Shown here piece by piece: positions 28,132-46,618 of a stretch of 51,966 nt of DNA. The position numbers were made by a program, and so were the translations under genes. Each line of letters opens with the position of its first letter. Position 1 is the stretch's first letter. The notes below the pieces were generated by a model, which ran no database searches, had not been told where the DNA came from, and saw only the letters and a program-made list of their open reading frames with translations. The stretch comes from Deltaproteobacteria bacterium (GTDB lineage Bacteria; Desulfobacterota; Desulfobaccia; Desulfobaccales; 0-14-0-80-60-11), in assembly GCA_003599195.1 (NCBI GenBank), contig QZIZ01000077.1:1-51966 (forward strand), read 5' to 3'.

Positions 28132-28146
28132 TGGCATACGTCTTGC
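28132..28146 (+). promoter_or_regulatory. Sigma54 (-24/-12) promoter candidate
   Basis: TGGCAT-ACGTC-TTGC, matching TGGCAC-N5-TTGC at the invariant GG and GC with correct spacing. Confidence 0.7.
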
Positions 28147-28198
28147 CTTATGCATGAGGCAAAGCAACAGTCACGTGTGGACTTTCAAGGGGAAGATT

Positions 28199-30511
28199 GT
28201 GACGAAAAATAATATCAGCCCTGATTTGTACAGCGAGGTCCAGAGGCTTGGGGCCAGGGACATGGAAGTCTGCATGCAATGCGGCAACTGTGCTTCCGCC
28301 TGTCCCTTGTCGGCCGGGGAAAACACCTTTCCCCGAAGAATCTATCGCTATCTCCAGCTCGGCTTGAAAGACAAGCTGCTGGAAGCTCCGGAACCTTGGC
28401 TCTGTTATTATTGCGGTGACTGCAACACCGATTGTCCCCGGGGCGCGGAACCCGCGGAGACCATGATGGCGACGCGGCGCTGGCTGATGACCCAGTATGA
28501 TTGGACGGGAATTGCCAGAAGATTTTATACCTCGCCCAAAACCGAGGTTGGCGCTTTTCTCGGCGTTGGCCTGGTCGTCATCCTGCTTTTCCTGATCTTT
28601 CATGGGCCGGTGGTTACCGACCGGGTGGAGCTCAACACCTTCGCGCCGGTCCATTGGATCCACCTCGGCGACCAGATCGTGATGGGATTTGTTTTTTTGA
28701 TGTTGTTTTCGAATGCGGCCCACATGTTTTCCAGGATCATGCGGGGCATGAAGATACCGCTGCATCTCTATCTCACCCAGGCGCCGGTGTTCCTCATCAA
28801 CTACTTCACCCAGAAACGGTGGCGGAAATGCGGCACCGGTCCGGGCAGCGCCTGGTGGCGGCACCTTTTCCTGTTCTCCGGCTGGGTGTCGATGGAGATC
28901 CTGGTGATGGTGTATCTCTCGGACTTCCAGACCGATATCGTCCATCCCGTTTGGCATTGGACCCGGCTGCTGGGCTATTACGCCACCATCGCCCTGATGG
29001 TTGCCTCCACCGCCATGCTGTACAGCCGCTGGTTTAAGAAAGAGCAGAATCTCCACCGCTATTCCGATTTTACGGACATGTTCTTCCTGGTGTTGATCGC
29101 CGCCATTGCGGCCACCGGCATTCTGGTCCATTTTTTCAGGCTGGCCGGACTGCCGATCATGACCTACTCGACTTATGTGCTCCATCTCGCCATCACTGCG
29201 GGCATGCTGACCCTCATGATCCCGTTTGGCAAACTCTCCCATCTGATGTACCGGCCTCTGGCCATCTTCCTGACGACCTTGAAAGAAAAGGCCCTCCGTG
29301 ATTCTCCGGCCACCCTGGCGGCAATGCGTGCGGATCTCGGCGATACCTTCCAGAGCTGCATGCAGTGCGGCGCCTGCACTGGGATCTGCCCCTGGAACGA
29401 GGTTGCCAGCTACAGTCCCCGGAAGATTCTCCGGGATATTTCTTTGGACAAGGCCTCGAACTTTTCAGTCGATCAAGCCTCATGGACCTGCGCCACCTGT
29501 AACAGCTGCGCCGAACAATGCCCCCGGGGCATCAGCTCCCTTGATCTGATAAAGTCCGTCCGCCGCCATGTCGTCGAGGCCGGATCATTGCCGAAATCCT
29601 TTAATGCAGCCGTGCAGAGTCTGAAAACAGACGGCAACCCTTGGGCCGGGAAAAGGGAAAACCGCCTGGCTTGGGCCAGGGGCGCCAACCTGCCCGCTTA
29701 TAGCGAAGAACACGAGTATTGCCTCTTCACCTGCTGTACCACGGCCTATGACACCGCGGCCGATAAAGGCAGCCAAAAGGCCGGCATTGCTCTCCTCAGC
29801 CTGCTCGATTATGCCGGCGTCTCCTATGGAACCCTGGGAACCAAGGAGAGTTGTTGCGGTGACGTGGCCGACAAGATCGGGGCCGCGGACACCGCCGCCG
29901 CACTGGCCAACAAGAATACCGAGATATTTTTAGAGGCGGGCGTTTCCAAGATCCTGACCATCTCCCCTCACTGTCTGAATTCATTCAAAAAGAATTATGA
30001 CGGGCTGAAGAAGCTAGACATAGTTCATTCCACCGAGCTTCTGGATGAACTCATCCAGAAGGGTTTAATCCAACCCGTCAACAGGCTTGACCTCAAGGTG
30101 ACCTACCATGATCCCTGCTATCTGGGCAGGCATTCCGCCATCTATGATGCGCCCCGGAGAATCCTGGAGGCCATCCCGGGCGCAACACTGCTGGAGATGC
30201 AGAATAGCCGGGAGCGGAGCTTCTGTTGCGGTGGCGGCGGCGGGGGGCCATGGAAGGAGAAGGTCGGCAAAGAAAGTCTGGGCGAAATTCGAGTCAAAGA
30301 GGCCTTAGGCACCGGCGCGGGGGTGATCGCCACCGCCTGCCCTTACTGCATCCGCACGCTCAATGAGGCCATCGCCAGACTGGGGGCCGGAAACAAGATT
30401 ATCGTCAGGGATATAGCAGAACTGCTTCTGGAGTCGGTTGATCTGTCGCTACGTCTGTCCAAACCGCAAAAACCAATATTGGGGCTTTCCCAGGAGTACT
30501 CTAATGTCTGA
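28199..30511 (+). CDS. HdrC-like / NarI-like cytochrome b / HdrD-like fusion iron-sulfur membrane protein
   Basis: N-term 'CMQCGNCASACP' and 'CYYCGDCNTDCP'; about six TM segments; second pair 'CMQCGACTGICP' and 'CATCNSCAEQCP'; C-term CCG domains 'YHDPCYLGRHS...SFCCGGGGGGPW'. GTG 28199 preceded by AGGGGA and lies after the sigma54 site, so preferred over 28088. Confidence 0.85.
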   Translation: MTKNNISPDLYSEVQRLGARDMEVCMQCGNCASACPLSAGENTFPRRIYRYLQLGLKDKLLEAPEPWLCYYCGDCNTDCPRGAEPAETMMATRRWLMTQYDWTGIARRFYTSPKTEVGAFLGVGLVVILLFLIFHGPVVTDRVELNTFAPVHWIHLGDQIVMGFVFLMLFSNAAHMFSRIMRGMKIPLHLYLTQAPVFLINYFTQKRWRKCGTGPGSAWWRHLFLFSGWVSMEILVMVYLSDFQTDIVHPVWHWTRLLGYYATIALMVASTAMLYSRWFKKEQNLHRYSDFTDMFFLVLIAAIAATGILVHFFRLAGLPIMTYSTYVLHLAITAGMLTLMIPFGKLSHLMYRPLAIFLTTLKEKALRDSPATLAAMRADLGDTFQSCMQCGACTGICPWNEVASYSPRKILRDISLDKASNFSVDQASWTCATCNSCAEQCPRGISSLDLIKSVRRHVVEAGSLPKSFNAAVQSLKTDGNPWAGKRENRLAWARGANLPAYSEEHEYCLFTCCTTAYDTAADKGSQKAGIALLSLLDYAGVSYGTLGTKESCCGDVADKIGAADTAAALANKNTEIFLEAGVSKILTISPHCLNSFKKNYDGLKKLDIVHSTELLDELIQKGLIQPVNRLDLKVTYHDPCYLGRHSAIYDAPRRILEAIPGATLLEMQNSRERSFCCGGGGGGPWKEKVGKESLGEIRVKEALGTGAGVIATACPYCIRTLNEAIARLGAGNKIIVRDIAELLLESVDLSLRLSKPQKPILGLSQEYSNV

Positions 30512-33500
30512 GCGAATCGGGTTTTATATCTGCCACTGCGGGATCAACATTGCCTATCGTGTCAGAGTCCAGGAGGTGGCGGAATATGCGGCCACCTTCC
30601 CGGGGGTCGTGGTTTCCAAAGATTATCTCTTTATGTGTTCGGACCCGGGGCAGGATCTCATCGAAAAAGACATCAAGAATCTAGGCCTCACGCATGTGAT
30701 TGTGGCCTCCTGCTCGCCCCGCATGCATGAAAAGACCTTTCGCGCCGCCTGCCAGCGGGCGGGGTTGAATCCCTACCGGGCTTTCCATATGGTCTGTGTC
30801 CGGGAACACGGATCCTGGGTGACGGAAAGCGAGGATGAGGCTACCGCCAAGGCCATCACCCTGGTCCGGGCCGGCCTGATGCGGGTTACGAATCAGGTTG
30901 CGCTCTTTCCCAGCAAATTCTCGGTCAATCCCAACACCCTGGTGGTCGGGGGCGGGATCGCCGGCATGCAGGCGGCACTGGATATCGCCAGCTCCGGCAA
31001 TCAGGTCTATCTGGTGGAACGCCAGCCCACCGTTGGGGGGCACATGCTCCAGTACGACAAGACCTTCCCGACCTTGGACTGTGCGGCCTGTATCGGCACG
31101 CCGAAAATGGTGGCCGTGGGCCAGGACAAGAACATCAATCTGATGACCAATTCCGAGGTGGAGAGCGTCAGCGGTTTTGTGGGCAACTTTAAGGTCAATG
31201 TCAATCAGCGCTCCCGCTACGTGAAGACGAACTGCACCGGTTGCGGGGACTGTGCCAAGGTCTGTCCGGTGGAGGCCCCGAACGAATGGGATGTGGGGAC
31301 GAAGATGCGCAAGGCCATCTATATCTCCTTCCCCCAGGCGGTGCCGGTGCGTTATGCCATTGAAAAATATGACCGGGGACCCTGCGTGCAAACCTGTCCG
31401 GCCGGCATCAATATTCAGGGGTTTGTCGCCCTGATCAAAGACGGGAGATACCAGGAATCACTCAAGGTGATTATGGAAACGATGCCGCTTCCCGGCACGC
31501 TGGGCCGTATCTGTCCCGCTCCCTGCGAGGCCCAGTGCCGCAGGCGGGAGGTTGATTCCCCCCTGGCGGTCTGCCAGTTGAAACGGTTTGCGGCGGACCA
31601 GGTTGATTGGGACACCTTGCCGGCGCCGGAAATTGAGAAGAAGCCGGAAACCGAGAAGGTGGCCGTCATCGGCGCGGGTCCGGCAGGGCTTTCCACTGCC
31701 TATTTCCTGGCTAAGAAAGGGTATCATCCCACCATTTTCGAAAGAGCGCCCTTTGCCGGCGGCATGCTCCGGGCCGGCATCCCGGACTACCGGCTGCCGC
31801 CCGCGGTCCTGGAACAGGAGATCAACTACATCAAAAAGCTGGGCGTGGACATTCAGCTGAATGTCGAGATCGGCCAGGACCGTCCGGTTGCCGGTTTCTT
31901 CGATGAGGGATTTAAGGCCGTTTATCTGGCGGTGGGCGCCCAGAGCAGCATGAAGTTGAAAATCGAAAATGAGGATGCCGTAGGGGTCATGCACGGCATC
32001 GATTATCTCGGCCTGCTCAACCGCAGGCAACCGGTCAAGACCGGCAATAAGGTCGCGGTGGTCGGCGGCGGCGACGTGGCCATCGACGCGGCCCGGGAGG
32101 CCATCCGGCAGGGTGCGTCCGAAGTGAAGATGCTCTACCGGCGCAGCCGGGAAGAAATGCCGGCTTCCAAGCATGAGATCCAGGCCGCCGAGGAAGAAGG
32201 CATCAAGATCGAACTGTTGACGGCTCCCGTCTCAGTACTGACCACAGACGGCAAGGTTTCCGGGCTGCGCTGCATCAAGATGGAGCTGGGTGAGCCGGAC
32301 GCCTCCGGTAGAAGGCGGCCGGTGCCGGTTGCCGATTCGGAATTTGACGTCGATTGCGACATGATCATCCCGGCCATCGGCCAAAGGGTCAACAGCAGCT
32401 TCCTGGAAGGCACGGAAGGGATCGAATTAACCCGCTGGGGAACGATTGTGGCCGATCCGGTGACCTATCAGACCACCTTCCCGGGGATCTTTGCCGGCGG
32501 TGACATGTTTACCGGTCCGTCCGTCGCCGTGGCCGCGGTGGCCGCAGGCCAGCAGGCGGCCATTTCCATAGAAAGGTATCTGCTGGGCGAGGACCTGGCG
32601 GAGAACAGGCCCTCCAAACCCACGGGGAATAACTGGAAGGCGATCTCGAAAAAGGTCAAGGCCTCCTCCCGGGCGAAGATGCCGATCCTGCCGGTGGCGG
32701 AGCGCCTAGACAATTATAAGGAAGTCGAGCTGGGATTCGATGAGGCGCAGGCCAGGGCAGAGGCGGCCCGCTGCGTGGATTGCGGGGGCTGCTGCGAATG
32801 CAAGCTCTGTATCGAGGCCTGCAAGGCCGGCGCCATTGACCATGAGATGACCGACAAGAAGGAGACCATCGACGTCGGCTCCATCATCATTGCCACCGGT
32901 TTCGATCCCATGAATCCGGTGAAGATGACCCAATACGGCTACGGCAAGTACCGGAACGTCTTTACCAATATTGAATTCGAGCGTCTTTCCAACGCCACCG
33001 GGCCGACCGCGGGCAAGCTCCTGAAGCGTGATCTGAAAGATCCCTTGAAGTTCACAGAAGCGCCGAAGAGCGTGGCGATTCTCCACTGCATCGGCAGCCG
33101 GGACCAAAACTACCATGAATACTGCTCCCGCACCTGCTGCATGTATGCCCTGAAGTATGCGCATCTGCTGAAAGACAAATGCGGGCATGACACCCAGGTC
33201 TATAACTTCTATATCGACATGCGCTGCTTCGGCAAGGGCTACGAGGAATTCTACAAGAAGGTCCAGGCCGAAGGAGTCAAGATGATCCGCGGCAAGGCCG
33301 GCTCCATCACCGAGGACGAGAACGGCATCCTCACCGTTAAGGGAGAAGACACCCTTTCCGGCCGCCTGATCGAGGTCCCGGTGGAGATGGTGATCCTCTG
33401 CACCGCCATGGAAGCCAGGCCGGATGCGCCGGATGTCATGCGGAAGTTCGGGATAGGTATCGGCCAGGACGGATTCTTCCAGGAGTCGCATCCCAAACTG

Positions 33501-33887
33501 GCGCCCGTATCCACCCCCACCAGCGGCGTTTTTCTGGCCGGGGCCTGCCAGGGGCCGAAGGATATCCCGGACACGGTGGCCCAGGCGAAGGGGGCCGCAG
33601 CGGAAGCCCTGGCCTTGACCTCCGCGGGCCAGGTCGAGATCCCGCCCATGATCTCCAGTATCGATCCCGACATCTGCGTCGGTTGCCAGCTCTGTATCGG
33701 GCTTTGCGCCTATTCGGCCATCGAATTCAACAGGTATGCCGGGATTAGCGAGGTCAACAGCGCTATTTGCAAGGGATGCGGCAGCTGCTCCGGCATCTGC
33801 CCCAGCGGCGCCGCCAAGGTGAGACACTTCACCGATAAACAGATTTTTGCAGAAATAGACGGACTCTTACTTTCCCAAGGAGCTTGA
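30504..33887 (+). CDS. HdrA-like FAD/Fe-S protein with embedded GltD-like NAD(P)H oxidoreductase module
   Basis: HdrA part 'IGFYICHCGINIAYRVRVQEVAEYA', 'VVGGGIAGMQAALDIASSGNQVYLVERQPTVGGHM'; insertion 'PCVQTCPAGINIQGFVALIKDG...GRICPAPCEAQCRR...VAVIGAGPAGLSTAYFLAKKGYHPTIFE...VAVVGGGDVAIDAAREA'; HdrA resumes with 'EYCSRTCCMYALKYAHLL' and C-term ferredoxin clusters. Confidence 0.9.
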   Translation: MSERIGFYICHCGINIAYRVRVQEVAEYAATFPGVVVSKDYLFMCSDPGQDLIEKDIKNLGLTHVIVASCSPRMHEKTFRAACQRAGLNPYRAFHMVCVREHGSWVTESEDEATAKAITLVRAGLMRVTNQVALFPSKFSVNPNTLVVGGGIAGMQAALDIASSGNQVYLVERQPTVGGHMLQYDKTFPTLDCAACIGTPKMVAVGQDKNINLMTNSEVESVSGFVGNFKVNVNQRSRYVKTNCTGCGDCAKVCPVEAPNEWDVGTKMRKAIYISFPQAVPVRYAIEKYDRGPCVQTCPAGINIQGFVALIKDGRYQESLKVIMETMPLPGTLGRICPAPCEAQCRRREVDSPLAVCQLKRFAADQVDWDTLPAPEIEKKPETEKVAVIGAGPAGLSTAYFLAKKGYHPTIFERAPFAGGMLRAGIPDYRLPPAVLEQEINYIKKLGVDIQLNVEIGQDRPVAGFFDEGFKAVYLAVGAQSSMKLKIENEDAVGVMHGIDYLGLLNRRQPVKTGNKVAVVGGGDVAIDAAREAIRQGASEVKMLYRRSREEMPASKHEIQAAEEEGIKIELLTAPVSVLTTDGKVSGLRCIKMELGEPDASGRRRPVPVADSEFDVDCDMIIPAIGQRVNSSFLEGTEGIELTRWGTIVADPVTYQTTFPGIFAGGDMFTGPSVAVAAVAAGQQAAISIERYLLGEDLAENRPSKPTGNNWKAISKKVKASSRAKMPILPVAERLDNYKEVELGFDEAQARAEAARCVDCGGCCECKLCIEACKAGAIDHEMTDKKETIDVGSIIIATGFDPMNPVKMTQYGYGKYRNVFTNIEFERLSNATGPTAGKLLKRDLKDPLKFTEAPKSVAILHCIGSRDQNYHEYCSRTCCMYALKYAHLLKDKCGHDTQVYNFYIDMRCFGKGYEEFYKKVQAEGVKMIRGKAGSITEDENGILTVKGEDTLSGRLIEVPVEMVILCTAMEARPDAPDVMRKFGIGIGQDGFFQESHPKLAPVSTPTSGVFLAGACQGPKDIPDTVAQAKGAAAEALALTSAGQVEIPPMISSIDPDICVGCQLCIGLCAYSAIEFNRYAGISEVNSAICKGCGSCSGICPSGAAKVRHFTDKQIFAEIDGLLLSQGA

Positions 33888-33891
33888 TGCG

Positions 33892-34320
33892 ATGAGCGAG
33901 TTTGAACCCCAAATAGTGGCGTTTTTCTGTAACTGGTGCACCTTCACCGCCGCGGATCTTGCGGGCACTTCGCGGTTGTCATACCCGCCCAACCTCAAGA
34001 TCATCAGGGTGATGTGCACCGGCATGGTCGATCCGAAGTTCGTCATCAAGGCCTTCCTGCACGGCGCGGATGGTGTCTTGATCGGCGGCTGTTGGCCCGG
34101 GGATTGCCATTACATCAATGGCAACCTGAAGGCGCGGCGCCGGGTGGCCAACCTCACCGAGGTTCTGAAACAGTACGGGATCGGTGAAGACCGGTTCTGG
34201 CTCCGGTGGATCGCCGCCAGTGAAGGGACCATGCTGCAGGAAGTGGCGAAGGACATGACTGAAAAATTGAAGCAGCTCGGACCAAGCCCCCTTCGGAATT
34301 TGGGTCAAATAGCAGTTTGA
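33892..34320 (+). CDS. MvhD-like hydrogenase iron-sulfur subunit
   Basis: 'VAFFCNWCTFTAADLAGTSRLSYPPNLKIIRVMCTGMVDPKFVIKAFLHGADGVLIGGCWPGDCHY'. Confidence 0.9.
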   Translation: MSEFEPQIVAFFCNWCTFTAADLAGTSRLSYPPNLKIIRVMCTGMVDPKFVIKAFLHGADGVLIGGCWPGDCHYINGNLKARRRVANLTEVLKQYGIGEDRFWLRWIAASEGTMLQEVAKDMTEKLKQLGPSPLRNLGQIAV

Positions 34321-35480: not shown

Positions 35481-38400
35481 ATGGCTGAAAAGAAGCCTGC
35501 AGGCACAGTCCTGGTGGCCGGCGCCGGCATCTCTGGAATCAAGGCGGCCATTGAGCTGGCTGAATCCGGCTACAAGGTTATCCTGACCAATGATTCTCCA
35601 CAGATAGGCGGTATCCTGGCCAAACTTGATTACCAATTCCCGACGGACCACTGCGGCATGTGCAGAATGCTGCCCCTGGTGGGCCGGGAGTATGCTTCGC
35701 AGTACTGCATGCGCAAAAGCCTGTTTCATGAAAATATCGAGATCATGCCCTTTACGGAGATCACCGCGATACAGGGGGATGCGGGGAATTACAAGGTCGA
35801 CCTGCTGAAAAAGGCCCGCTGCATCGACCCGGCCGTCTGCAATGAGATGGGCAAATGCATCGACGTCTGCCCGGTGGAGGTTGAAGACGAGTTCAACCTG
35901 GGACTGACCAAGCGGAAAGCAGTCTACCAGGCAGTGCCCCATAATACCCCCAAGATGCTGCTCATCGACAAACAGGCCTGCACCCGCTGCGGCGAGTGCC
36001 TCAAGGTATGTCCGACCAATGCCATCAATCTGGATGCCGAAGACGAGCCGGAGACCAGGGAGGTCCACGCCATTATCCTGGCTTCCGGCGTGAAGCTCTA
36101 TAATATCCAGGAATTTGAGGACGCCAAGTCCTACGCGGTATCACCGGATGTCGTCACCTCCCTTGCCTTCGAGCGGATGCTCAGCGGCACCGGCACTTAT
36201 CAGGGCGACGTAATCCGGCGGCCCTCAGACGGCAGGCCGGCCAAAAACATTGCCTGGATCCAGTGTATGGGATCCCGGAATCGGCGCCAGAAAAGAGAAT
36301 ACTGCTCCTCCATATGCTGCATGTTCGCGCTGAAAGAGGCCGTCCTGGCTAAGGAAAAAGGCGGGCCGGAGGTTGACACTACCATTTTTTATATGGATAT
36401 GCGGACCTTTGGCAAAGGCTTTCAACAGTACCGGGACAAGGCCGTCAACGAGCACGGAGTGAACCTTATCCGCTGCAGGGTGCAGGGAGTTATGCTCAAG
36501 CCCGACGGCAATCTGCAGATGCGTTATATCGATCCCGACACCAACGAATTCTTTTTAAAGGATTACGATCTGGTGGTGATGTCCACGGGGCAGATACCCT
36601 TTGAAACCCACAAGAAATGGGCCGATCTCCTGAATGCGCCTTTAGATGAGCGAGGCGTTCTGGCTACCGAGAAGTCCAGTAAGGTCAAGGTCGCCGACAA
36701 ACCGGGCCTGTTTCTGTGCGGCTCTCTGATGGGGCTTACCGATATCAGTGAGGCCATGGTCAGCGGTATTGCCGCGGCGGGCGAGGCCAGCAAATTTCTG
36801 GCCACTTTGGGCGTGGACAAGATGCAGGAGGAGGAAATTCCCGAGCCGCCCGCCCAAAGCCGGGAACTGCCCCTGGTCTCGGTGGCCCTGTGTCAATGCG
36901 GGGAGAAGCCGGGTGCGGAAGGACTCGATTATGAGCTGCTCAGCGCTGAATTGAAACGCCATCCCGGAGTGGATGCAGTCCATACCATTACTTCCATCTG
37001 CAAAGCCGAGGGAGAAACCGAGCTCGCCGGCCTCCTGGGCAAGACCAAGTGCAACCGGCTCTTGATCGGGGCCTGCCAGCCTTTCATGTACCGGCGGAAG
37101 CTGAAAAACGAGGCCAGGAAAGCAGGTTTCAACTCCTCCATGGTGGAGATCTTCGATCTGTTCGGCATTGCCAGGAGGGGCATGGTCGAGTCTGCGAACG
37201 GAGACTGGACCTTACGGGCAGCCCGGGATGTCAAATCGGATATCGAAAAGCTCAAGTATAAACCTGAGTTAAAGGTGAGCACCTTGCCCATCAACCAGAG
37301 CGCCCTGGTGATCGGCGGCGGCATCGGCGGCATGCACGCGGCGCTGTCCCTGGCCGATCGGGGCGTGCCGGTGCATCTGGTGGAAAAGGAAGCGCACCTG
37401 GGCGGCTACCTCGGCAACCAGTTGGAGCATACGGTGGATGGCCTGGCGCCCATGGCCATGGCTACAGCTATGAAGCTGAGGGTGTTCGAAAACAAGAACA
37501 TCACGGTCCATCTGAATAGCGAGGTGGAAAAAAGCGTCGGCACCCTGGGCTGCTTTGAAACCAAACTGCATTCCCAGGAGACCGCTGAAAATACCTATCT
37601 GCGCCATGGCGCGGTGATCCTGGCCACGGGCGGGCATGAGGGAGCCACCAGCGAATACGGTTACGGGACTTCGGACGCAGTGCTGACCCAGGGCGAATTG
37701 AAGAAAGGTCTGGCCAGCGGCGATCTCGATCTCAGCGAGGTCGAGAACGTGGTGATGATCCAATGCGTCGGTTCCCGGCAGCCGGGGGGCCGCCCTTACT
37801 GCAGCCGTATCTGCTGCCTGGGCGCCATCGACAACGCTCTGAAGATCAAAGAGAAAAATCACGAGGCCCGGGTCTTCATTCTTTACCGCGATATCATGAC
37901 CTATGGCTTCTACGAGCAATACTATTCCCAGGCGAGGTCAGCCGGGATCATCTTTATGAATTACAGTCTGGACGACAAGCCGGAGGTGGAGTTCGTCGAC
38001 GGACAACCGGTCGTCATCTTGACGGATCCTGTCCTGAAAGAGGAAATGGAGCTGAATGCGGATCTCCTGGTTCTTTCCACCGGCGTGGATCCGGAAGAGT
38101 CAAACAAGAGACTCGCCGCTGCCTTCGGCGTTTCCGTGGCCGAGGACGGGTTCTTCGCCGAAGCGGATTCGAAATGGCGTCCCATCGAGTTCCAGAAAGT
38201 CGGACTTTATCTGGCCGGCACGGCCCATTCACCCATGCCGCTGCGGAGCGTGATCCTGCAGGCCGAAGCCGCGGCCCAGAAGGCCTATACTTACCTGTCC
38301 GGCCGCGAGGTGCACACCGCCGCAGTCACTTCTACGGTGAAAGACGCCCTGTGCATCCGCTGCCAGAGATGCGTGAACATCTGTCCGTACGGGGCGAGGT

Positions 38401-38606
38401 CATACAACGAAGCGGATAAGCGCATCGATATTGACGCCGCCGAATGCCAGGCCTGCGGCATGTGCGCGGCGGAGTGCCAGAACAACGCGGCTGAGGTCAG
38501 AGGCTGGAGTGACAAACAACTGATGGCTGTCATTGATGCGAAGATCATGGACAGCACGCTCTCAAGCCTTGGAGATGGCAAAAGCGGCCTAAGGCAAAAC
38601 GTTTAA
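35481..38606 (+). CDS. Tandem HdrA-HdrA-like protein
   Basis: 1041 aa; two FAD Rossmann motifs 'VLVAGAGISGIKAAIELAESGYKVILTN' and 'ALVIGGGIGGMHAALSLADRGVPVHLVE', and two 'YCS(S/R)ICC' motifs. Confidence 0.9.
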   Translation: MAEKKPAGTVLVAGAGISGIKAAIELAESGYKVILTNDSPQIGGILAKLDYQFPTDHCGMCRMLPLVGREYASQYCMRKSLFHENIEIMPFTEITAIQGDAGNYKVDLLKKARCIDPAVCNEMGKCIDVCPVEVEDEFNLGLTKRKAVYQAVPHNTPKMLLIDKQACTRCGECLKVCPTNAINLDAEDEPETREVHAIILASGVKLYNIQEFEDAKSYAVSPDVVTSLAFERMLSGTGTYQGDVIRRPSDGRPAKNIAWIQCMGSRNRRQKREYCSSICCMFALKEAVLAKEKGGPEVDTTIFYMDMRTFGKGFQQYRDKAVNEHGVNLIRCRVQGVMLKPDGNLQMRYIDPDTNEFFLKDYDLVVMSTGQIPFETHKKWADLLNAPLDERGVLATEKSSKVKVADKPGLFLCGSLMGLTDISEAMVSGIAAAGEASKFLATLGVDKMQEEEIPEPPAQSRELPLVSVALCQCGEKPGAEGLDYELLSAELKRHPGVDAVHTITSICKAEGETELAGLLGKTKCNRLLIGACQPFMYRRKLKNEARKAGFNSSMVEIFDLFGIARRGMVESANGDWTLRAARDVKSDIEKLKYKPELKVSTLPINQSALVIGGGIGGMHAALSLADRGVPVHLVEKEAHLGGYLGNQLEHTVDGLAPMAMATAMKLRVFENKNITVHLNSEVEKSVGTLGCFETKLHSQETAENTYLRHGAVILATGGHEGATSEYGYGTSDAVLTQGELKKGLASGDLDLSEVENVVMIQCVGSRQPGGRPYCSRICCLGAIDNALKIKEKNHEARVFILYRDIMTYGFYEQYYSQARSAGIIFMNYSLDDKPEVEFVDGQPVVILTDPVLKEEMELNADLLVLSTGVDPEESNKRLAAAFGVSVAEDGFFAEADSKWRPIEFQKVGLYLAGTAHSPMPLRSVILQAEAAAQKAYTYLSGREVHTAAVTSTVKDALCIRCQRCVNICPYGARSYNEADKRIDIDAAECQACGMCAAECQNNAAEVRGWSDKQLMAVIDAKIMDSTLSSLGDGKSGLRQNV

Positions 38607-38619
38607 GGAGGAACATATC

Positions 38620-39711
38620 GTGAAGCCTCAGCAAACCAGCGAACGGCCCCATATGAAAAATGTCTTAGGCTTTCAGGTGCCCACCGATGTCTATTATTTG
38701 CATCAGGGCCATGCCTGGGCAGCGTTGGAAGAAACGGGCCTGGTGCGCGTTGGCCTGGATGATTTCTCGCAAAAAATCATCGGCCCGGCAGACGGCCTCA
38801 AGCTGCCCGGAATCGGCAAGACCTATTATCAAGACCATATCTGCCTTTCCCTGTTCAAAGAGGGAAGAAAGGCTTCCTTCGAAGCCCCGCTGGATGGGGT
38901 AATCGAGGCCGTCAATCCCAAAGTTCGCCAACAGCCCAATCTGGTTCATGACGATCCTTATGGGGAAGGCTGGCTGTGCCTGGTCAAGCCCATCAATCTC
39001 GAGAGCAACCTGGACAACCTCTCTTCCGGAGAGGCCAATGCCACCTGGATCAATGAAGAAGCTCACCGCTTGCTGAACTTCACGGAGGGTAAGGCCGGCG
39101 TTACCCTGCCGGATGGCGGCGCCGTCGTCGACAACCTCCTCGGACTTTACCCGGATATTGGCTGGCGGCCGCTAATCAGGGAGTTTTTCTTAAAACACTT
39201 GACCACAAAAGTCTTGGCAGAAGGATCAACCAAAGATTTGTGGAAAGACATCTACAGCAACGGCAATCTCCAGTACTGCTTCAACTGCAGCACCTGCGTA
39301 TCCGGATGTCCCGCCTCCCATGGAGATCCGCCGCTTTTGGTGAGAAATCTGGCCAGGAAGGTGATCTTGGGGCTGGAGGAGGAACTCATCGAAGATAACA
39401 CTCCATGGGCCTGCGTCTCCTGTTCCAGATGCGAGGAGATGTGCCCCATGAATGTCATGCCCTTTGAGATGATTCTCTCTATCCGGCAATGGCAGTGCCG
39501 CAACGACGAGACCCTGATCCCGCCCGCCATCGTCGAGATCTATAAGCGAGGCTACACCCAGGCGGTCGGGGTGAATATGGAGTTACGGGAATCGCTGGGG
39601 TTGTCCCAGTTGCCCACCATAACCAACAATCAGGAACAACTGGAAATGTTTCGTGAAATGCTGATGCAGACCCAGATAGTCAGCGAGAACGACTATATGT
39701 TCAAGGGTTGA
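38620..39711 (+). CDS. GcvH-like domain fused to an HdrC-like 4Fe-4S domain
   Basis: N-term 'VYYLHQGHAWAALEETGLVRVGLDDFSQKIIGPADGLKLPGIGK...LVHDDPYGEGWLCLVKP'; C-term 'YCFNCSTCVSGCPA...CVSCSRCEEMCPMNVMPFEMI'. Start at 38620 (GTG, after GGAGG) or 38653. Confidence 0.88.
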   Translation: MKPQQTSERPHMKNVLGFQVPTDVYYLHQGHAWAALEETGLVRVGLDDFSQKIIGPADGLKLPGIGKTYYQDHICLSLFKEGRKASFEAPLDGVIEAVNPKVRQQPNLVHDDPYGEGWLCLVKPINLESNLDNLSSGEANATWINEEAHRLLNFTEGKAGVTLPDGGAVVDNLLGLYPDIGWRPLIREFFLKHLTTKVLAEGSTKDLWKDIYSNGNLQYCFNCSTCVSGCPASHGDPPLLVRNLARKVILGLEEELIEDNTPWACVSCSRCEEMCPMNVMPFEMILSIRQWQCRNDETLIPPAIVEIYKRGYTQAVGVNMELRESLGLSQLPTITNNQEQLEMFREMLMQTQIVSENDYMFKG

Positions 39712-39782: not shown

Positions 39783-40688
39783 ATGCAACTATGTTTCTTC
39801 CCAGGCTGTAATACACCTGCCATCCGACCGGATGTAGAGCGGGCCATAAGGGCGTCAATGCCCGTTCTGGGCATTGAGCTGGTGGATGCCGACAACTATG
39901 TCTGCTGCCCGGCATTCGGCTCTTTCCCCTCTGCCGATGAGGAAGCCTGGATGGCGACCAGCGGCTGGAATCTTTCCATTGCCGAACAAAAAGGGTGCGA
40001 TTTCGTCGTTCAGTGCGGCTCATGTTACAGTTCCCTGCGCATGGGACGGGAGCATTTGGTGCATGACGCGGAAAAACTGGCCCACGTCAATGAACTGCTC
40101 GAGCCCACCGGACGGCAGGTCACGGGAAGTTCCAAAGTGCGCCATGTGTCCGAGGTCCTCTTTAAGGAAATAGGCCCTGAAAAGATTGCGTCGCACCTCA
40201 AAAAGAGTCTGGAGGGACTTCACGGCATCGCCCAGTATCCCTGCCATACCTTGTTCCCGAGTGAGGTCGTGGGGTTTGAAGAATCCCCCAGGGCGCCGGA
40301 GGGCTTGCGCCGCTTACTGGAGGCGCTGGGAGCGGAAGTGGACGGCTACAGCCGGGAACTGCAATGCTGCGGCGGAGCGGGCGGATTCATGAAGAGCACG
40401 CCGGAGCAGGCTCTCGAATTCGCCAAAACCAAGTTCGATGCAATTCTCGAGGAAACCAAGGCCGATTTTATCGCCGTCTCCTGCATCACCTGCCTGATGC
40501 ATATGGAAAGGGTGCAAAATACCTTCAATCAACAGCTTGGGGAAGAGCGATACAAAATCCCGGTTTTCGATTACAACCAGTTGCTCGCGCTCTGTCTGGG
40601 ATTTGATCCGAAACAGGTTTCGGCGATCTATAACGTTCCCAGGGACTCGGTCCTAAGCCGCATAGTGTCCGTCAAATCAAATGCGTAA
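39783..40688 (+). CDS. HdrB-like CCG-domain protein
   Basis: 'MQLCFFPGCNTPAIRPDVERAIRASMPVLGIELVDADNYVCCPAFGSF', 'ELQCCGGAGGFM', 'FIAVSCITCLMHMERVQ'. Confidence 0.9.
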   Translation: MQLCFFPGCNTPAIRPDVERAIRASMPVLGIELVDADNYVCCPAFGSFPSADEEAWMATSGWNLSIAEQKGCDFVVQCGSCYSSLRMGREHLVHDAEKLAHVNELLEPTGRQVTGSSKVRHVSEVLFKEIGPEKIASHLKKSLEGLHGIAQYPCHTLFPSEVVGFEESPRAPEGLRRLLEALGAEVDGYSRELQCCGGAGGFMKSTPEQALEFAKTKFDAILEETKADFIAVSCITCLMHMERVQNTFNQQLGEERYKIPVFDYNQLLALCLGFDPKQVSAIYNVPRDSVLSRIVSVKSNA

Positions 40689-41378: not shown

Positions 41379-41526
41379 AAGAAAAAGGCCTGAAAACCCG
41401 GAGAATGCGCCATTCCTCCCCTTACCCGGCCCTCACCCTCCTTTGAGGAGGGTGAGGCGGGTGGCTTGGGCAAACCTTATCCATTGATTGAATCCGCCAA
41501 AGATGGTCATGTTGGGAGCTACGTCC

Positions 41527-42408
41527 ATGGCAGAGAAAATTATCGAAAGCAAAAACCGCTGCATATGGATGGATGCCGGGGTGGTTCAATTCAAGCTCTG
41601 CGATAGTGATTTCGATTGCCTATCCTGCGAATTCGACCGGGCCATGACCGAATCCGCGGCCCAACAACTGGCGCGGCGGCAACTGGCGGATAAATCCGCG
41701 CCCCGGGAAGTAAAGGCGGTTCCGTGGGAAACCAAGATGCGCCAACGTTTCGGGGAACGCCGGGATTGCCCCTTGATGAAGTCAAATCTTTGCCATCATT
41801 GTTCGTTCGATGAACTTCTTGAGGAGCAATTCGATTCTTTCCTGGCTCCGGAAAACCCCCGGGTCCATGAAATCTTCGGCATTCGGGTGACCACCTCCAA
41901 CTTCCTGCACCGCGGCCATACCTGGGTGGCTCTGGAAGACGGAAACCGGGTGCGCCTCGGGTTGGACGACTTCTCTCAGAAAGTTCTGGGGCCCGCCACC
42001 AAAATCAATTTGCCGAAAGTTGGACAACAAATTATCGCCAACGAACCCTTCATGGCCCTGGGCCGGAACAGGAACAAGGCTGAGGTTCTGGCGCCCCTGG
42101 ACGGGATCATTGAGGCGGTCAATCCCAAGGCCGGGAAGAGGCCCCAAATTGCCCATGACGATCCCTACGTCGAGGGCTGGCTGGTGATAATCGCCCCCGG
42201 AAACCTTAAGGGAAATTTGCAGGAGATGCTATTCGGCCAGTGCAACATCGCCTGGACAGAGAGCGAAATCATCAAGCTGCTGGGAATGCTGCAAACCGCG
42301 CCCGGACTTACTCTGCCTTCCGGCGGAGCCCTCATGGACGACGTTTATGGGAACTACCCGCAGTTGGGGTGGAAGCGTTTGGTGCATGAATTTCTGCATA
42401 CCGCTTGA
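41527..42408 (+). CDS. GcvH-like protein with N-terminal Cys-rich extension
   Basis: N-term 'NRCIWMDAGVVQFKLCDSDFDCLSCEFDRAM...CPLMKSNLCHHCSFDELL'; C-term GcvH-like 'FLHRGHTWVALEDGNRVRLGLDDFSQKVLGPATKINLPKVGQ'. Confidence 0.83.
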   Translation: MAEKIIESKNRCIWMDAGVVQFKLCDSDFDCLSCEFDRAMTESAAQQLARRQLADKSAPREVKAVPWETKMRQRFGERRDCPLMKSNLCHHCSFDELLEEQFDSFLAPENPRVHEIFGIRVTTSNFLHRGHTWVALEDGNRVRLGLDDFSQKVLGPATKINLPKVGQQIIANEPFMALGRNRNKAEVLAPLDGIIEAVNPKAGKRPQIAHDDPYVEGWLVIIAPGNLKGNLQEMLFGQCNIAWTESEIIKLLGMLQTAPGLTLPSGGALMDDVYGNYPQLGWKRLVHEFLHTA

Positions 42409-42970
42409 GGGGTGGAAGCAGGCCCTGGTTCCGGAAGTAATCGTTCAAAAAGATCCGGCAGTAGCGGCAGAAGGCTGGATTTTTCCGGTCCAGTTCTTCC
42501 AGGCTCGATGAAAATTCCATTAAACAGCCATCTTCGCGGCAATGCCCCAGACCGAAAGTGTGTCCCAATTCGTGCAGGCTCAGCTTTACCAGGCGTCCCA
42601 ATAAGACTCGCTTAGACGCCGGGGGCCCACCGTCGTCACCCCGGGGGCGGAACAACGAGATGATGGCGGCCTTGCCGTTTAACTGGGCCTCACCGAAGAC
42701 GAAAGTCAGGATGGGGATAAAAAGGTCTTTGGCAGTCACCCCCAAGATCCGAAAAGCCTCGGTTTCTCCATCATCTATTAGAAATTCCAGCAGTTGGGCG
42801 GCATGATATTGCCGGCGGGTTATGTGATAAGACTGCCGCGGCAAAGGCTTGGGATCCAGCACCCGCACCGGCAGCAACAGGAGTCTATCGAGGGTGGCGC
42901 ACAGTTTCCGGAGGATGGCCGGATCGACGGGGCCTAAAGCCACCAAGCCTAAAAACGGATGCTTTGCCAT
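42332..42970 (-). CDS. Archaemetzincin-like zinc metalloprotease
   Basis: HEXXHXXGXXHCxxxxCxM motif in 'LSLHELGHTFGLGHCREDGCLMEF'; second Cys pair 'CRYCRIFL'. Confidence 0.88.
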   Translation of the reverse strand: MAKHPFLGLVALGPVDPAILRKLCATLDRLLLLPVRVLDPKPLPRQSYHITRRQYHAAQLLEFLIDDGETEAFRILGVTAKDLFIPILTFVFGEAQLNGKAAIISLFRPRGDDGGPPASKRVLLGRLVKLSLHELGHTFGLGHCREDGCLMEFSSSLEELDRKNPAFCRYCRIFLNDYFRNQGLLPPLKRYAEIHAPNASTPTAGSSHKRRP

Positions 42971-43014: not shown

Positions 43015-44364
43015 TTAGGGCGCCAGGCCGTATTTCTTGACCTTTGCATAAAGAGTGGAGCGGTTGATGCGCAGGATTCTGGCAGTGGTGGAAAGATTAC
43101 CGGCTTCGATGGCCAGGACCCGGGCAATGTGCTGGCGCTCCATCTCATCCAGGGACAACTTCTCCATTTCTGCCGCGCCTCCCAAGGGAATGACAAAAGG
43201 CAAATCGTTAAGTTGGATTTGCCGGTTTTTGCCCACCACCACGGCGCGTTCGATGGCATTTTCCAATTCCCGGACATTTCCGGGCCAGGGGTAACGCCGT
43301 AAGGCCTCCATCGCCTCCGGTTGAATGGAATCGATCTTCTTATTCGTCTCGGTGGCATAGCACCGCAAAAAATGCTGGGCCAGCAGCGGGATGTCTTCCG
43401 GCCGTTCCCTCAGCGGGGGCACCTGGAGATGAACGACGTTCAGGCGGTAATACAGATCGGCCCTGAAGGTCTTCTTATGGATTGCTTCCTGAAGGTCCTG
43501 GTTGGTGGCGGCGATGACCCGGAAATCGCTGCGCAGGGTCGCGGTGCCGCCCACCCGGGAAAATTCCCGGGTCTCCAGCACCCGCAGCAGGTCAATCTGC
43601 ATTTTCATTGAAATATCGCCCACTTCGTCAAGGAAGAGGGTCCCGGCATTGACCATTTCCAGGCGGCCTTTTTTAGTATTTTTGGCATCGGTGAAGGCGC
43701 CTTTCTCGTGGCCGAAAAGCTCGCTCTCAAGAAGTTGCTCGGTGAAGGCCCCGCAGTTGATGGCAATGAAAGGGGCGTAACACCGCGGGCTTTGGGCATG
43801 GATGGCGCGGGCCACCAATTCTTTGCCGGTGCCGGTTTCGCCGGTAATCAGGACGGTAGCGTCAGTCTGCGCCACATCAACAATGGTTTCAAACAATTGG
43901 ACCATGGCCGGGGCCTGGCTCACCAGATTCTCAAACCGAGTGAAGGTGGCGACCCGCTCCCTCAGAATCAGGTTTTCCATGGTCAGGGCCTGCATTCGCA
44001 CCAGTTTCTCGATGGTGAGGTTTAATTCCTCGAGGTCAAAGGGCTTGAGCAAATAATCATAGGCCCCCAGTTTCATGGCCTCCACCGCGTCCCGAATATC
44101 GCCGTGGGCGGTCATCATGACGATGATGGCATCCGCATCGGTTTCCTTTAACTTTTTGAGCAAGGTCAGGCCGTCTATTTCCGGCATCTTGACATCGACG
44201 AAGATGATGTCGAAACGGTTCTCCGCGTTCTTGGCCAAGGCCTCGGGACCGCCGGCCGCAGTCTCCACCTGATAGCCGCCCCGTTTCAGCCAACCCCTCA
44301 AAGATTCGCGGATACTCAATTCGTCATCAACTATCAGGATGCGGACCTTTTTATGCGGCACCAT
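43015..44364 (-). CDS. Sigma54-dependent NtrC-family response regulator
   Basis: Receiver 'ILIVDDELSIRESLRGWL...IIFVDVKMPEIDGLTLL'; AAA+ 'GETGTGKELVARAIHAQS' (Walker A) and GAFTDA; Fis-type HTH at the C-terminus. Confidence 0.95.
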   Translation of the reverse strand: MVPHKKVRILIVDDELSIRESLRGWLKRGGYQVETAAGGPEALAKNAENRFDIIFVDVKMPEIDGLTLLKKLKETDADAIIVMMTAHGDIRDAVEAMKLGAYDYLLKPFDLEELNLTIEKLVRMQALTMENLILRERVATFTRFENLVSQAPAMVQLFETIVDVAQTDATVLITGETGTGKELVARAIHAQSPRCYAPFIAINCGAFTEQLLESELFGHEKGAFTDAKNTKKGRLEMVNAGTLFLDEVGDISMKMQIDLLRVLETREFSRVGGTATLRSDFRVIAATNQDLQEAIHKKTFRADLYYRLNVVHLQVPPLRERPEDIPLLAQHFLRCYATETNKKIDSIQPEAMEALRRYPWPGNVRELENAIERAVVVGKNRQIQLNDLPFVIPLGGAAEMEKLSLDEMERQHIARVLAIEAGNLSTTARILRINRSTLYAKVKKYGLAP

Positions 44365-46618
44365 GTTCTTCTCCAGCTTTCAAAGCGGGCAGACGGATGG
44401 TAAAGGTGGTCCCTTTCTCCAGGACACTGTCGACTTTGATAATGCCCTTATGGTCCCGGATAATGCCGTAGACCACCGAAAGCCCTAATCCCGCTCCGGA
44501 GCAGGTCTTTTTAGTGGTAAAAAAAGGTTCGAAGATTTGGGAAAGGCTTTCCCTGGGAATACCCTTCCCCGTATCGGAGATTTTTATCAATACGTCCCTG
44601 CGGATATTCTTTGTTTCCAGGGTTAGGGTGCCCCCTTGAGACATGGCTTCTTGGGCGTTCAGAACCAGATTTACCAGGATCTGTTTGATCTGCCCTCTAT
44701 CCGCTAAAACCTGATGCAGATCCGCATCCAGGTGGCGTTTAACAGTAATGTTTTGCAGCCGCATTTGGTGGCCGATGAGAGAGATGGTCTCTTCGATTTC
44801 GGCATTGAGGTTCACAGGCTGGAAATTCGGCTTGGATTTGCGGGAAAAAGCCAGCAGGTTGGACAGCGTTTTGCTGACCCTGGCGGTTTCATCATAGACC
44901 ATGGATAGATAATTGCGTATATCCCCCAATTCGTCCTGGCCGGGGTCCCCGTCATCCAGCATAGTCTGCATCAATTTGACGAAATTGAGTATCCCGGTCA
45001 AAGGGTTGTTGATTTCATGCACCACACTGGCCGATAATTTACCCAGGGAGGTCATCTTATCGTCGTGCAGCATTTGCGTGCGGGCCATAATTTCCTGGGT
45101 AACATCCCGGGCCAGATCAACCACCTGGTGGATGCGCCCATTCTCATCGTAAATGGGGTGGCAGACTACCTGATAGAACCGCTCCCGTCCCTGCTTGTCG
45201 AAGTGCACGTGGGTGACCGAGGAGGCCTTGCCGGTAGCCACCGCATCCTTTAAGGGACAGGGATGCTCCGGGTCGGCGCAGGGGTGCTTCAGGTGGTGCG
45301 TCACTTCATAACAAAATTTCCCCACCACTTCTTCGCGCTTCCGCCCCACCATCTGCAGCAAGGCCCGATTTACCTCGATGATCCGATAGTCCAGGCCTAT
45401 GACCATCATGTGATCCTGGATGCCGTTGACAATGGTTTCGAGAAAGGCCTTGTCTTTCCGGACCCGTTCTTCCGATTCTGCCAGGGCCTCCTCCAACTGC
45501 TTGCGGGCGGTGACATCCCTGATGACCTCGATCACCCTTTTTCTGGTCCCCTCAGGAGGACATAAGGGAGCCATGGTGATTTCGTCAAAGCGCTCGGTGC
45601 CGTCAGCATTGTCAAAGCGCTGTGTTACTTTGACGATTTGGTAATTCTCCATAACTTCCGGCAAGGGACAGGTCATGCCCAGGCGATCGCAGGGCTCCTT
45701 AAAACCATGAAAAACCTCGTAGCAGGGCCTGCCCACCACCTCCTCGAACTTCTTTTGGAAACGTTCCAGAGAGGGAAGGTTGGCTTCCTCCACTATGTAA
45801 TCGGGTTTCAGCACCAACACGGGATCAGGGAGATGGTTAAAGATTCTTTGAAACCGGTTGCGTTGGCCGGCCAATTTGATCTCGCTCTCGATCTTGCTGC
45901 GCACCCAGTCTTCTTCATAACGCAGCAGGTCCCAGAAGAGACGGGCCTTGATGTGGTCGATAACTTGGGTATAAGGATCCTTTCGCTGGATAATCTGCTC
46001 CCGCACTTGAGAATTGCCGGTGAGTTCCAGGATCAGATCCGGTTTTTCCGCCAGAAGATGGGTATAATCCCGAAAAGTAGGAATATTCAGACTTTGAGCC
46101 AGGATCATTCCCAGGGCTTCAAGATCGGGGTCGGCCACTCCGAGGATTTCGATGCGCCTTTTGTGGCGGGGGTCTTCGGTAATGAGCTGCAGTACTTCGT
46201 GTGCGGCCTTGCCGCCCCCCACGATGCCGAGGCGCAAGGGGGCGAATTCCTGGGAAGAGAGCTCCATGGAGATGAGGTCCCAGAATTTTTCCCAGGAATA
46301 GGGACGGTCAACACTCAAGACGATGAGGTTTTCCGGGCGCTGCTCATTCAAGCGGCGCGACACCTCCGGACTGCCGGTAGCGTTGACGATGATATTCACT
46401 TCCGGAAGCTGCAGCAGATCGGTGAAATTGACGGTGACGAAAAGATTGTGGCGGTAGGCGTATAAAATGCCGGGAGCTTCCGGATTGAGGTCCGCCACTC
46501 CTACCACCCGAATGGATTCATCTTCCTTGCGGGGCGGCACCAGAGCCGCCAGGATGGACATCCCCTGCCGCCCCGCGCCCACAATGGCCAGATTATATTT
46601 GGGTTTAAAAGGACTCAT
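44351..46618 (-). CDS. PAS-containing sensor histidine kinase with two N-terminal NAD(P)-binding-like Rossmann domains
   Basis: 'YNLAIVGAGRQGMSILAAL' and 'LRLGIVGGGKAAHEVLQLI'; two PAS domains; H-box 'SASVVHEINNPLTGILNFVKL'; ATP-binding 'ISDTGKGIPRESLSQIFEPFFTTK'. Confidence 0.9.
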   Translation of the reverse strand: MSPFKPKYNLAIVGAGRQGMSILAALVPPRKEDESIRVVGVADLNPEAPGILYAYRHNLFVTVNFTDLLQLPEVNIIVNATGSPEVSRRLNEQRPENLIVLSVDRPYSWEKFWDLISMELSSQEFAPLRLGIVGGGKAAHEVLQLITEDPRHKRRIEILGVADPDLEALGMILAQSLNIPTFRDYTHLLAEKPDLILELTGNSQVREQIIQRKDPYTQVIDHIKARLFWDLLRYEEDWVRSKIESEIKLAGQRNRFQRIFNHLPDPVLVLKPDYIVEEANLPSLERFQKKFEEVVGRPCYEVFHGFKEPCDRLGMTCPLPEVMENYQIVKVTQRFDNADGTERFDEITMAPLCPPEGTRKRVIEVIRDVTARKQLEEALAESEERVRKDKAFLETIVNGIQDHMMVIGLDYRIIEVNRALLQMVGRKREEVVGKFCYEVTHHLKHPCADPEHPCPLKDAVATGKASSVTHVHFDKQGRERFYQVVCHPIYDENGRIHQVVDLARDVTQEIMARTQMLHDDKMTSLGKLSASVVHEINNPLTGILNFVKLMQTMLDDGDPGQDELGDIRNYLSMVYDETARVSKTLSNLLAFSRKSKPNFQPVNLNAEIEETISLIGHQMRLQNITVKRHLDADLHQVLADRGQIKQILVNLVLNAQEAMSQGGTLTLETKNIRRDVLIKISDTGKGIPRESLSQIFEPFFTTKKTCSGAGLGLSVVYGIIRDHKGIIKVDSVLEKGTTFTIRLPALKAGEEHGAA

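What the first reader, a model, noticed from the sequence alone, without database searches (positions are those of the whole stretch)
38620..39711. GcvH-HdrC domain fusion
Seen: one ORF carries an N-terminal GcvH-like domain and a C-terminal HdrC-like pair of 4Fe-4S motifs, immediately upstream of HdrB. Inference: the fusion directly ties the GcvH-like fold to the HdrBC heterodisulfide-type active site, as a tethered substrate/carrier or a structural adaptor.
Basis: partly seen in the sequence, partly recalled or inferred. Interest (0 to 1): 0.68.

Follow-up and report, generated by a model that had tools for sequence, protein, structure and literature searches.

The report
Lysine-less GcvH domain fused to HdrC
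In a sulfur-cycle bacterium, a protein shaped like the glycine-cleavage H protein, but without the lysine that carries its cofactor, is fused to an iron-sulfur subunit of a heterodisulfide-reductase-type electron-transfer complex; it belongs to a widespread, undescribed family that has become attached to such complexes at least three separate times.

Summary
ORF 38620-39711 is one uninterrupted frame with a complete GcvH-fold domain (residues 19-143), a conserved extension of about 55 residues, and a complete HdrC with two CX2CX2CX3C motifs, directly upstream of HdrB. A second species of the genus has the same fusion (85% identity), so it is not an assembly artefact. Elsewhere in the phylum the same operon has a stand-alone HdrC and no GcvH. 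A gcvH-like copy with its own leader was inserted between hdrA and hdrC.

The "carrier" interpretation fails. The lipoyl-lysine position is glycine, and the "KA" lysine lies two residues away, inside a strand, and is not conserved. The genome lacks GcvP and GcvT, and neither lipoate ligase nor lipoate synthase was found.

The domain belongs to a large family ("GcvHx") found in 116 of 395 sampled genomes of the phylum. GcvHx travels with an M54 peptidase, a sigma-54 response regulator and a histidine kinase, carries sigma-54-type promoters, is enriched near Hdr genes, and has been fused to Hdr subunits in three different ways. Best explanation: a cofactor-free docking or adaptor subunit of sigma-54-controlled Hdr complexes. 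This is a new variant of a known theme (compare LbpA with sHdr).

The parts
28132..28147 (+). sigma-54 type -24/-12 promoter-like site (TGGCATACGTCTTGCC) in front of the Hdr operon
   Evidence: 2 mismatches to TGGCACN5TTGCW; same place and TGGCAT-N5-TTGC core in G016 and G015; GcvHx upstream regions <=1 mismatch 45/139 vs 0/309 controls
28163..30511 (+). QmoC-HdrC/HdrB fusion subunit (HdrF-like)
   Evidence: NCBIfam qmoC, TfrB and HdrC matches; homologues begin at about codon 26 of the listed ORF
30507..33887 (+). HdrA with inserted GltD-like NAD(P)H module (HdrL-like)
33892..34320 (+). MvhD/FlpD
   Evidence: PF02662 175 bits
34340..35470 (+). FrhB/HydB-like iron-sulfur subunit
35481..38606 (+). 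tandem HdrA-type flavoprotein
   Evidence: C-terminal tail differs from relatives where the GcvHx leader starts
38620..39711 (+). GcvHx-HdrC fusion protein, 363 aa
38674..39048 (+). GcvH-fold domain, residues 19-143
   Evidence: PF01597 62 bits; AF2 pLDDT about 97; Foldseek to 3ab9, TM 0.90 on target
38839..38883 (+). hairpin residues 74-88; tip E81-G82; the canonical lipoyl-lysine position is G82; K84 lies in the second strand
39049..39213 (+). family-specific C-terminal extension (WINEE..LPDGGAVVD..LGW..REFF), residues 144-198
   Evidence: conserved in all GcvHx aligned; pLDDT 82-97 to residue 190
39214..39708 (+). HdrC domain, residues 199-363; clusters at C220/223/226/230 and C265/268/271/275
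   Evidence: 73-86% identical to stand-alone HdrC
39783..40688 (+). HdrB, two CCG domains with CxxC/CC motifs
   Evidence: PF02754 90.7 bits, TIGR03288 219.9 bits
40764..41378 (+). stand-alone GcvHx (GcvH2); likely source copy, leader resembles that of the fusion gene
   Evidence: 68% identical to fusion N-half; leader match
41488..42408 (+). GcvHx with N-terminal Cys-rich domain (GcvH3)
42335..42970 (-). archaemetzincin-type M54 metallopeptidase
   Evidence: PF07998 85 bits; co-occurs with GcvHx
43015..44364 (-). sigma-54-activating response regulator
   Evidence: PF00158, PF00072 and HTH_8
44351..46618 (-). histidine kinase with N-terminal Rossmann-like region and PAS domains

Best explanation
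The N-terminal half is a cofactor-free GcvH-fold protein ('GcvHx') that acts as a docking or adaptor subunit of an Hdr-type, flavin-based electron-transfer complex; here it is permanently joined to HdrC. Shown by sequence: the fusion, its conservation, intact Fe-S and CCG motifs, loss of the lipoyl lysine, absence of detectable glycine-cleavage and lipoate machinery, recurrent fusion of the family to Hdr subunits, and a sigma-54/HK/M54-peptidase gene module. Inferred: the domain holds partners (other GcvHx copies, the Cys-rich GcvH3, or another donor/acceptor) against the HdrBC arm, and the whole operon is switched on from the sigma-54 site at 28132 by the RR/HK encoded downstream.
For: Fold. 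Same fusion in a second species under purifying selection. Canonical lysine column has K in only 5 of 73 family members (G in 36), and column 84 has K in 30 of 73. No LplA/LipB in G000 or any GcvHx-bearing genome of the family. No LipA above cut-off in them. No GcvP in 22/22 and no GcvT in 6/6. Three separate fusion clades (GcvHx-HdrC, HdrA-MvhD-GcvHx, HdrA-GcvHx). Hdr genes near GcvHx in 22/60 loci vs 3/40 random loci (P 9e-4). M54 peptidase in 100/116 GcvHx-positive vs 46/279 negative genomes. Sigma-54 sites.
Against: No complex could be modelled, so docking is inferred from fusion and neighbourhood only. The same Hdr operon exists elsewhere with no GcvHx in it (L042, L060-L065), so the domain is not essential to catalysis. 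Some GcvHx arrays sit beside SQR/DUF1641-like genes rather than Hdr (L009, L047, L051, L052), so the partner need not always be Hdr. The window's own sigma-54 site has 2 mismatches.
Confidence: 0.58

Rival explanations
1. Tethered carrier: the GcvH domain carries lipoate (or a related thiol group) on K84 and delivers it, or a sulfur-bound substrate, to the HdrB cluster, as proposed for LbpA with sHdr.
For: GcvH fold confirmed. LbpA, a lipoylated GcvH homologue, is essential for sHdr sulfur oxidation (PMC6067878, PMC10332631). K84 and the hairpin sequence KEGRKASFEAP are identical in both fusion carriers.
Against: The lipoyl position is Gly82; K84 is two residues off and in a strand, and K in only 30 of 73 family members. 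No LplA/LipB-fold ligase (the fold of sLpl) and no LipA above cut-off in the GcvHx-bearing genomes of the family.
Confidence: 0.08
2. Signalling coupler: GcvHx reports the redox or occupancy state of the Hdr complex to the adjacent histidine kinase/sigma-54 regulator, and the fusion places the reporter on the enzyme.
For: GcvHx genes lie beside M54 peptidase, RR and HK in 42/60 loci and carry sigma-54 sites. The kinase has an N-terminal Rossmann-like region. GcvH3-type members have an invariant Cys4 motif.
Against: Sigma-54 sites in front of GcvHx genes fit GcvHx being the output of the regulator at least as well as its input. The fused copy lacks the Cys domain.
Confidence: 0.2
3. Incidental fusion: a duplicated GcvHx gene landed in frame in front of hdrC; the fusion is tolerated but adds nothing beyond co-expression.
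For: Only two genomes of one genus have it. dN/dS of the GcvH part (0.40) is higher than that of HdrC (0.085). The leader shows it came from a duplication.
Against: The frame stays open and under constraint in both species. The family has been fused to Hdr subunits at least twice more, with different partners and at the other end.
Confidence: 0.14

Closest known systems
LbpA lipoate-binding proteins of the sHdr sulfur-oxidation system (PMC6067878, PMC10332631)
   Same: GcvH-like proteins genetically tied to an Hdr-type complex rather than to glycine cleavage
   Different: LbpA is a separate, lipoylated protein with its own ligase and LipS1/S2; GcvHx lacks the lysine, has a C-terminal extension, is fused to HdrC or HdrA, and sits in a sigma-54/HK/M54 module
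Glycine cleavage H protein GcvH (PF01597, PDB 3ab9)
   Same: Fold (TM 0.90 on 3ab9) and core sequence
   Different: No lipoyl lysine, no GcvP/T, extra C-terminal extension, fusion to HdrC
HdrC of methanogen HdrABC (PDB 5odc, 8rvv; TIGR03290)
   Same: Two CX2CX2CX3C motifs, homologous along most of the domain, next to HdrB
   Different: N-terminal GcvHx fusion; below the curated cut-off for the CoB-CoM enzyme
Hdr-like clusters of Desulfobacterium autotrophicum (HdrL = HdrA/glutamate-synthase fusion, HdrF; PMC2702500)
   Same: Same kinds of subunits: HdrA-GltD, membrane HdrC/HdrB fusion, MvhD
   Different: No GcvH component mentioned in the paper text
NCBIfam NF045810 'GcvH-related protein'
   Same: GcvH-like protein, by its model name from sulfate reducers
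   Different: Window proteins score 29-37 bits against a cut-off of 150

Membership tests
Glycine cleavage H protein (GcvH) | GcvH beta-barrel fold | tested here: met
   PF01597 62 bits; Foldseek 3ab9 TMt 0.90
Glycine cleavage H protein (GcvH) | lipoyl-accepting lysine at the hairpin tip (ESVKA) | tested here: not met
   Gly82 in both fusions; K in 5/73 family members
Glycine cleavage H protein (GcvH) | partner enzymes GcvP and GcvT in the genome | tested here: not met
   GDC-P 0/22, GCV_T 0/6, controls positive; G000 is 81% complete but relatives up to 100%
LbpA (sHdr system) | lipoylated lysine | tested here: not met
   no lysine at the site
LbpA (sHdr system) | cognate sLpl(AB)-type ligase | tested here: not met
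   PF21948 absent in G000 and all GcvHx-bearing family genomes; rings in the Sulfolobus control
LbpA (sHdr system) | LipS1/LipS2 | not tested
HdrC | two CX2CX2CX3C [4Fe-4S] motifs | tested here: met
   C220-C230 and C265-C275
HdrC | encoded next to HdrB and HdrA | tested here: met
HdrC | curated CoB-CoM HdrC score (TIGR03290, 160 bits) | tested here: not met
   73.7 bits: an HdrC homologue, not the methanogen equivalog
HdrB | two CCG domains with CC...CxxC cluster motifs | tested here: met
   PF02754, 2 stretches; sequence
NF045810 GcvH-related protein | score over 150 bits | tested here: not met
   29.1 bits fusion, 36.8 bits GcvH2

The most novel reading that the evidence does not exclude
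GcvHx is a new class of cofactor-free subunit for electron-bifurcating Hdr-type complexes across the Desulfobacterota: an H-protein fold recruited as a docking platform, deployed through a dedicated sigma-54 two-component/M54-peptidase module, and fused to Hdr subunits on three independent occasions.
Probability: 0.35. Interest if true: 0.75.

Novelty: new variant of a known kind. Interest (0 to 1): 0.57.

Why it matters
GcvH-like proteins next to Hdr-type enzymes are usually read as lipoate carriers because of LbpA. This family shows the same genetic association without a lipoylation site or a detectable lipoylation pathway, so the link between the H-protein fold and Hdr chemistry cannot rest on lipoate alone. 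It also names a common, uncharacterised regulatory and redox module in sulfur-cycle bacteria: 29% of sampled genomes of the phylum carry the family, 25% carry it together with an M54 peptidase.

Tried and rejected
Merged-gene or assembly artefact: rejected, same fusion in an independent MAG and constrained frame. Glycine cleavage: rejected, no GcvP/GcvT. Lipoyl carrier: strongly disfavoured. Sigma-54 site at the fusion gene itself: none within about 220 nt; the site lies at the operon head. A deeper alignment (A3) to improve the HdrC half of the model failed because MAFFT split the distant HdrC rows, so the HdrC half stays at low pLDDT and domain orientation is not interpreted. Foldseek of the GcvH3 model found only H proteins among its significant hits; the Cys-rich N-terminal domain was not identified. 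Literature searches found no paper on a GcvH-HdrC fusion or on the GcvH/M54/sigma-54 module (open-licence full texts only).

Full report
1. Observation. ORF 38620-39711 (+) encodes 363 aa in one frame. Pfam GCV_H matches residues 28-143 (62.2 bits) and 4Fe-4S models match 217-279. NCBIfam HdrC TIGR03290 matches 218-353 (73.7 bits), and solved HdrC chains match from residue 214 (E about 5e-20). HdrB (two CCG domains) follows. The gene lies in a same-strand run: QmoC-HdrCB, HdrA-GltD, MvhD, HydB-like, tandem HdrA, GcvHx-HdrC, HdrB, GcvHx, GcvHx.

2. Not an artefact. G016 (MAG WY4.bin79, same genus) has the same full-length fusion at 85% identity and the same gene order. Between the two, dN/dS is 0.22 for the whole frame, 0.40 for the GcvH core and 0.085 for HdrC.

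3. Origin. Other Desulfobacterota carry the same operon with a stand-alone HdrC of 167-186 aa, 73-86% identical, and no GcvH gene in it (L042, L060-L065). The fusion keeps all of HdrC. Its upstream leader resembles that of the stand-alone GcvHx downstream (40764) in both species, and the end of hdrA has been replaced where that leader begins. So a GcvHx copy with its leader was most likely inserted between hdrA and hdrC, in frame.

4. Not a lipoyl carrier. Across 73 GcvHx rows it is K in 5; K84, the 'KA' lysine, is K in 30. AlphaFold2 gives residues 10-190 block-mean pLDDT of 82-98, with the hairpin turning at E81-G82 and K84 in the next strand. The genome has no LplA/LipB-fold ligase, no LipA above cut-off, no GcvP and no GcvT. 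The genome is 81% complete, but GcvHx-bearing relatives of 93-100% completeness give the same result for LplA/LipB, LipA and GcvP. The only other GcvH homologue found in this genome also lacks the lysine.

5. A family with a module. A profile of the domain plus its C-terminal extension finds 116 of 395 genomes across the phylum. In 60 loci from diverse families, 48 have an M54 peptidase, 48 a sigma-54 regulator, 48 a histidine kinase and 42 all three. M54 genes occur in 100 of 116 GcvHx-positive and 46 of 279 negative genomes (not corrected for kinship). Hdr genes lie near GcvHx in 22/60 loci against 3/40 random loci (P 9e-4). Regions upstream of GcvHx genes hold a sigma-54 site with at most one mismatch in 45/139 cases and 0/309 controls (controls come from five genomes). 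The window operon has TGGCATACGTCTTGCC at 28132, conserved in G016 and G015. The stand-alone-HdrC relative G006 has no such site within 590 nt of its operon.

6. Recurrent fusion. Besides GcvHx-HdrC, the family is found at the C-terminus of an HdrA-MvhD protein (G008-G010, G017, G024) and of HdrA (G346, G399, G206). The three groups fall in separate, well-supported places in the domain tree. Repeated fusion to different Hdr subunits is the best evidence that GcvHx works with Hdr complexes.

7. Mechanism. Shown: the points above. Inferred: GcvHx docks on the Hdr complex, and the fusion fixes it to the HdrC arm that feeds HdrB. What it docks, and the substrate of this HdrB, are unknown. I place the adaptor reading at 0.58, a signalling coupler at 0.20, an incidental fusion at 0.14 and a carrier at 0.08.

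8. Comparison. The nearest concept is LbpA with sHdr (PMC6067878, PMC10332631), which defines a GcvH-like protein working with an Hdr-like complex. GcvHx fails its defining feature (lipoylated lysine), so it is not filed as LbpA or GcvH. No paper on this architecture was found in the open-licence library; that is not proof of absence.

Noticed in passing
38620-39711 vs L040:13123-14217: Synonymous divergence between the two fusion genes is about 0.2 in residues 1-200 but about 0.5 in HdrC and in the rest of the operon, with the step near the fusion point; this suggests recombination or later spread of the GcvHx part.
   Followed up: partly
G000:C123:4120-4476 (L001) and homologues across the family: A second GcvH homologue (EAKNGRRELIAPISG) with no lysine at the lipoyl position, in genomes without GcvP; function unknown.
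   Followed up: partly
41488-42408; also about 60 homologues: GcvH3-type members carry an N-terminal domain with an invariant Cys4 motif (CIWMxAGVVxxKxCxxxxDCxxC) and a second Cys cluster, without a Pfam match; probable metal or Fe-S site.
   Followed up: partly
L009:7256-12531 (G000:C3); L047, L051, L052: Three or four tandem GcvHx genes followed by an SQR-like flavoprotein and a DUF1641-like protein (identified from sequence by eye), in most cases next to a second HK/RR/M54 set: the family is not tied to Hdr alone.
   Followed up: no
L043, L045, L046, L048, L049, L053, L148, L149, L162, L198: HdrA-like and MvhD-like frames are interrupted so that the pieces align to consecutive parts of one protein; probable selenocysteine (TGA) versions, a type known in sulfate reducers (PMC2702500). 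Stop codons were not checked one by one.
   Followed up: no
44351-46618: Histidine kinase whose N-terminal 260 residues resemble NAD-binding Rossmann domains (PF01408/PF03447); may sense a nicotinamide cofactor.
   Followed up: no
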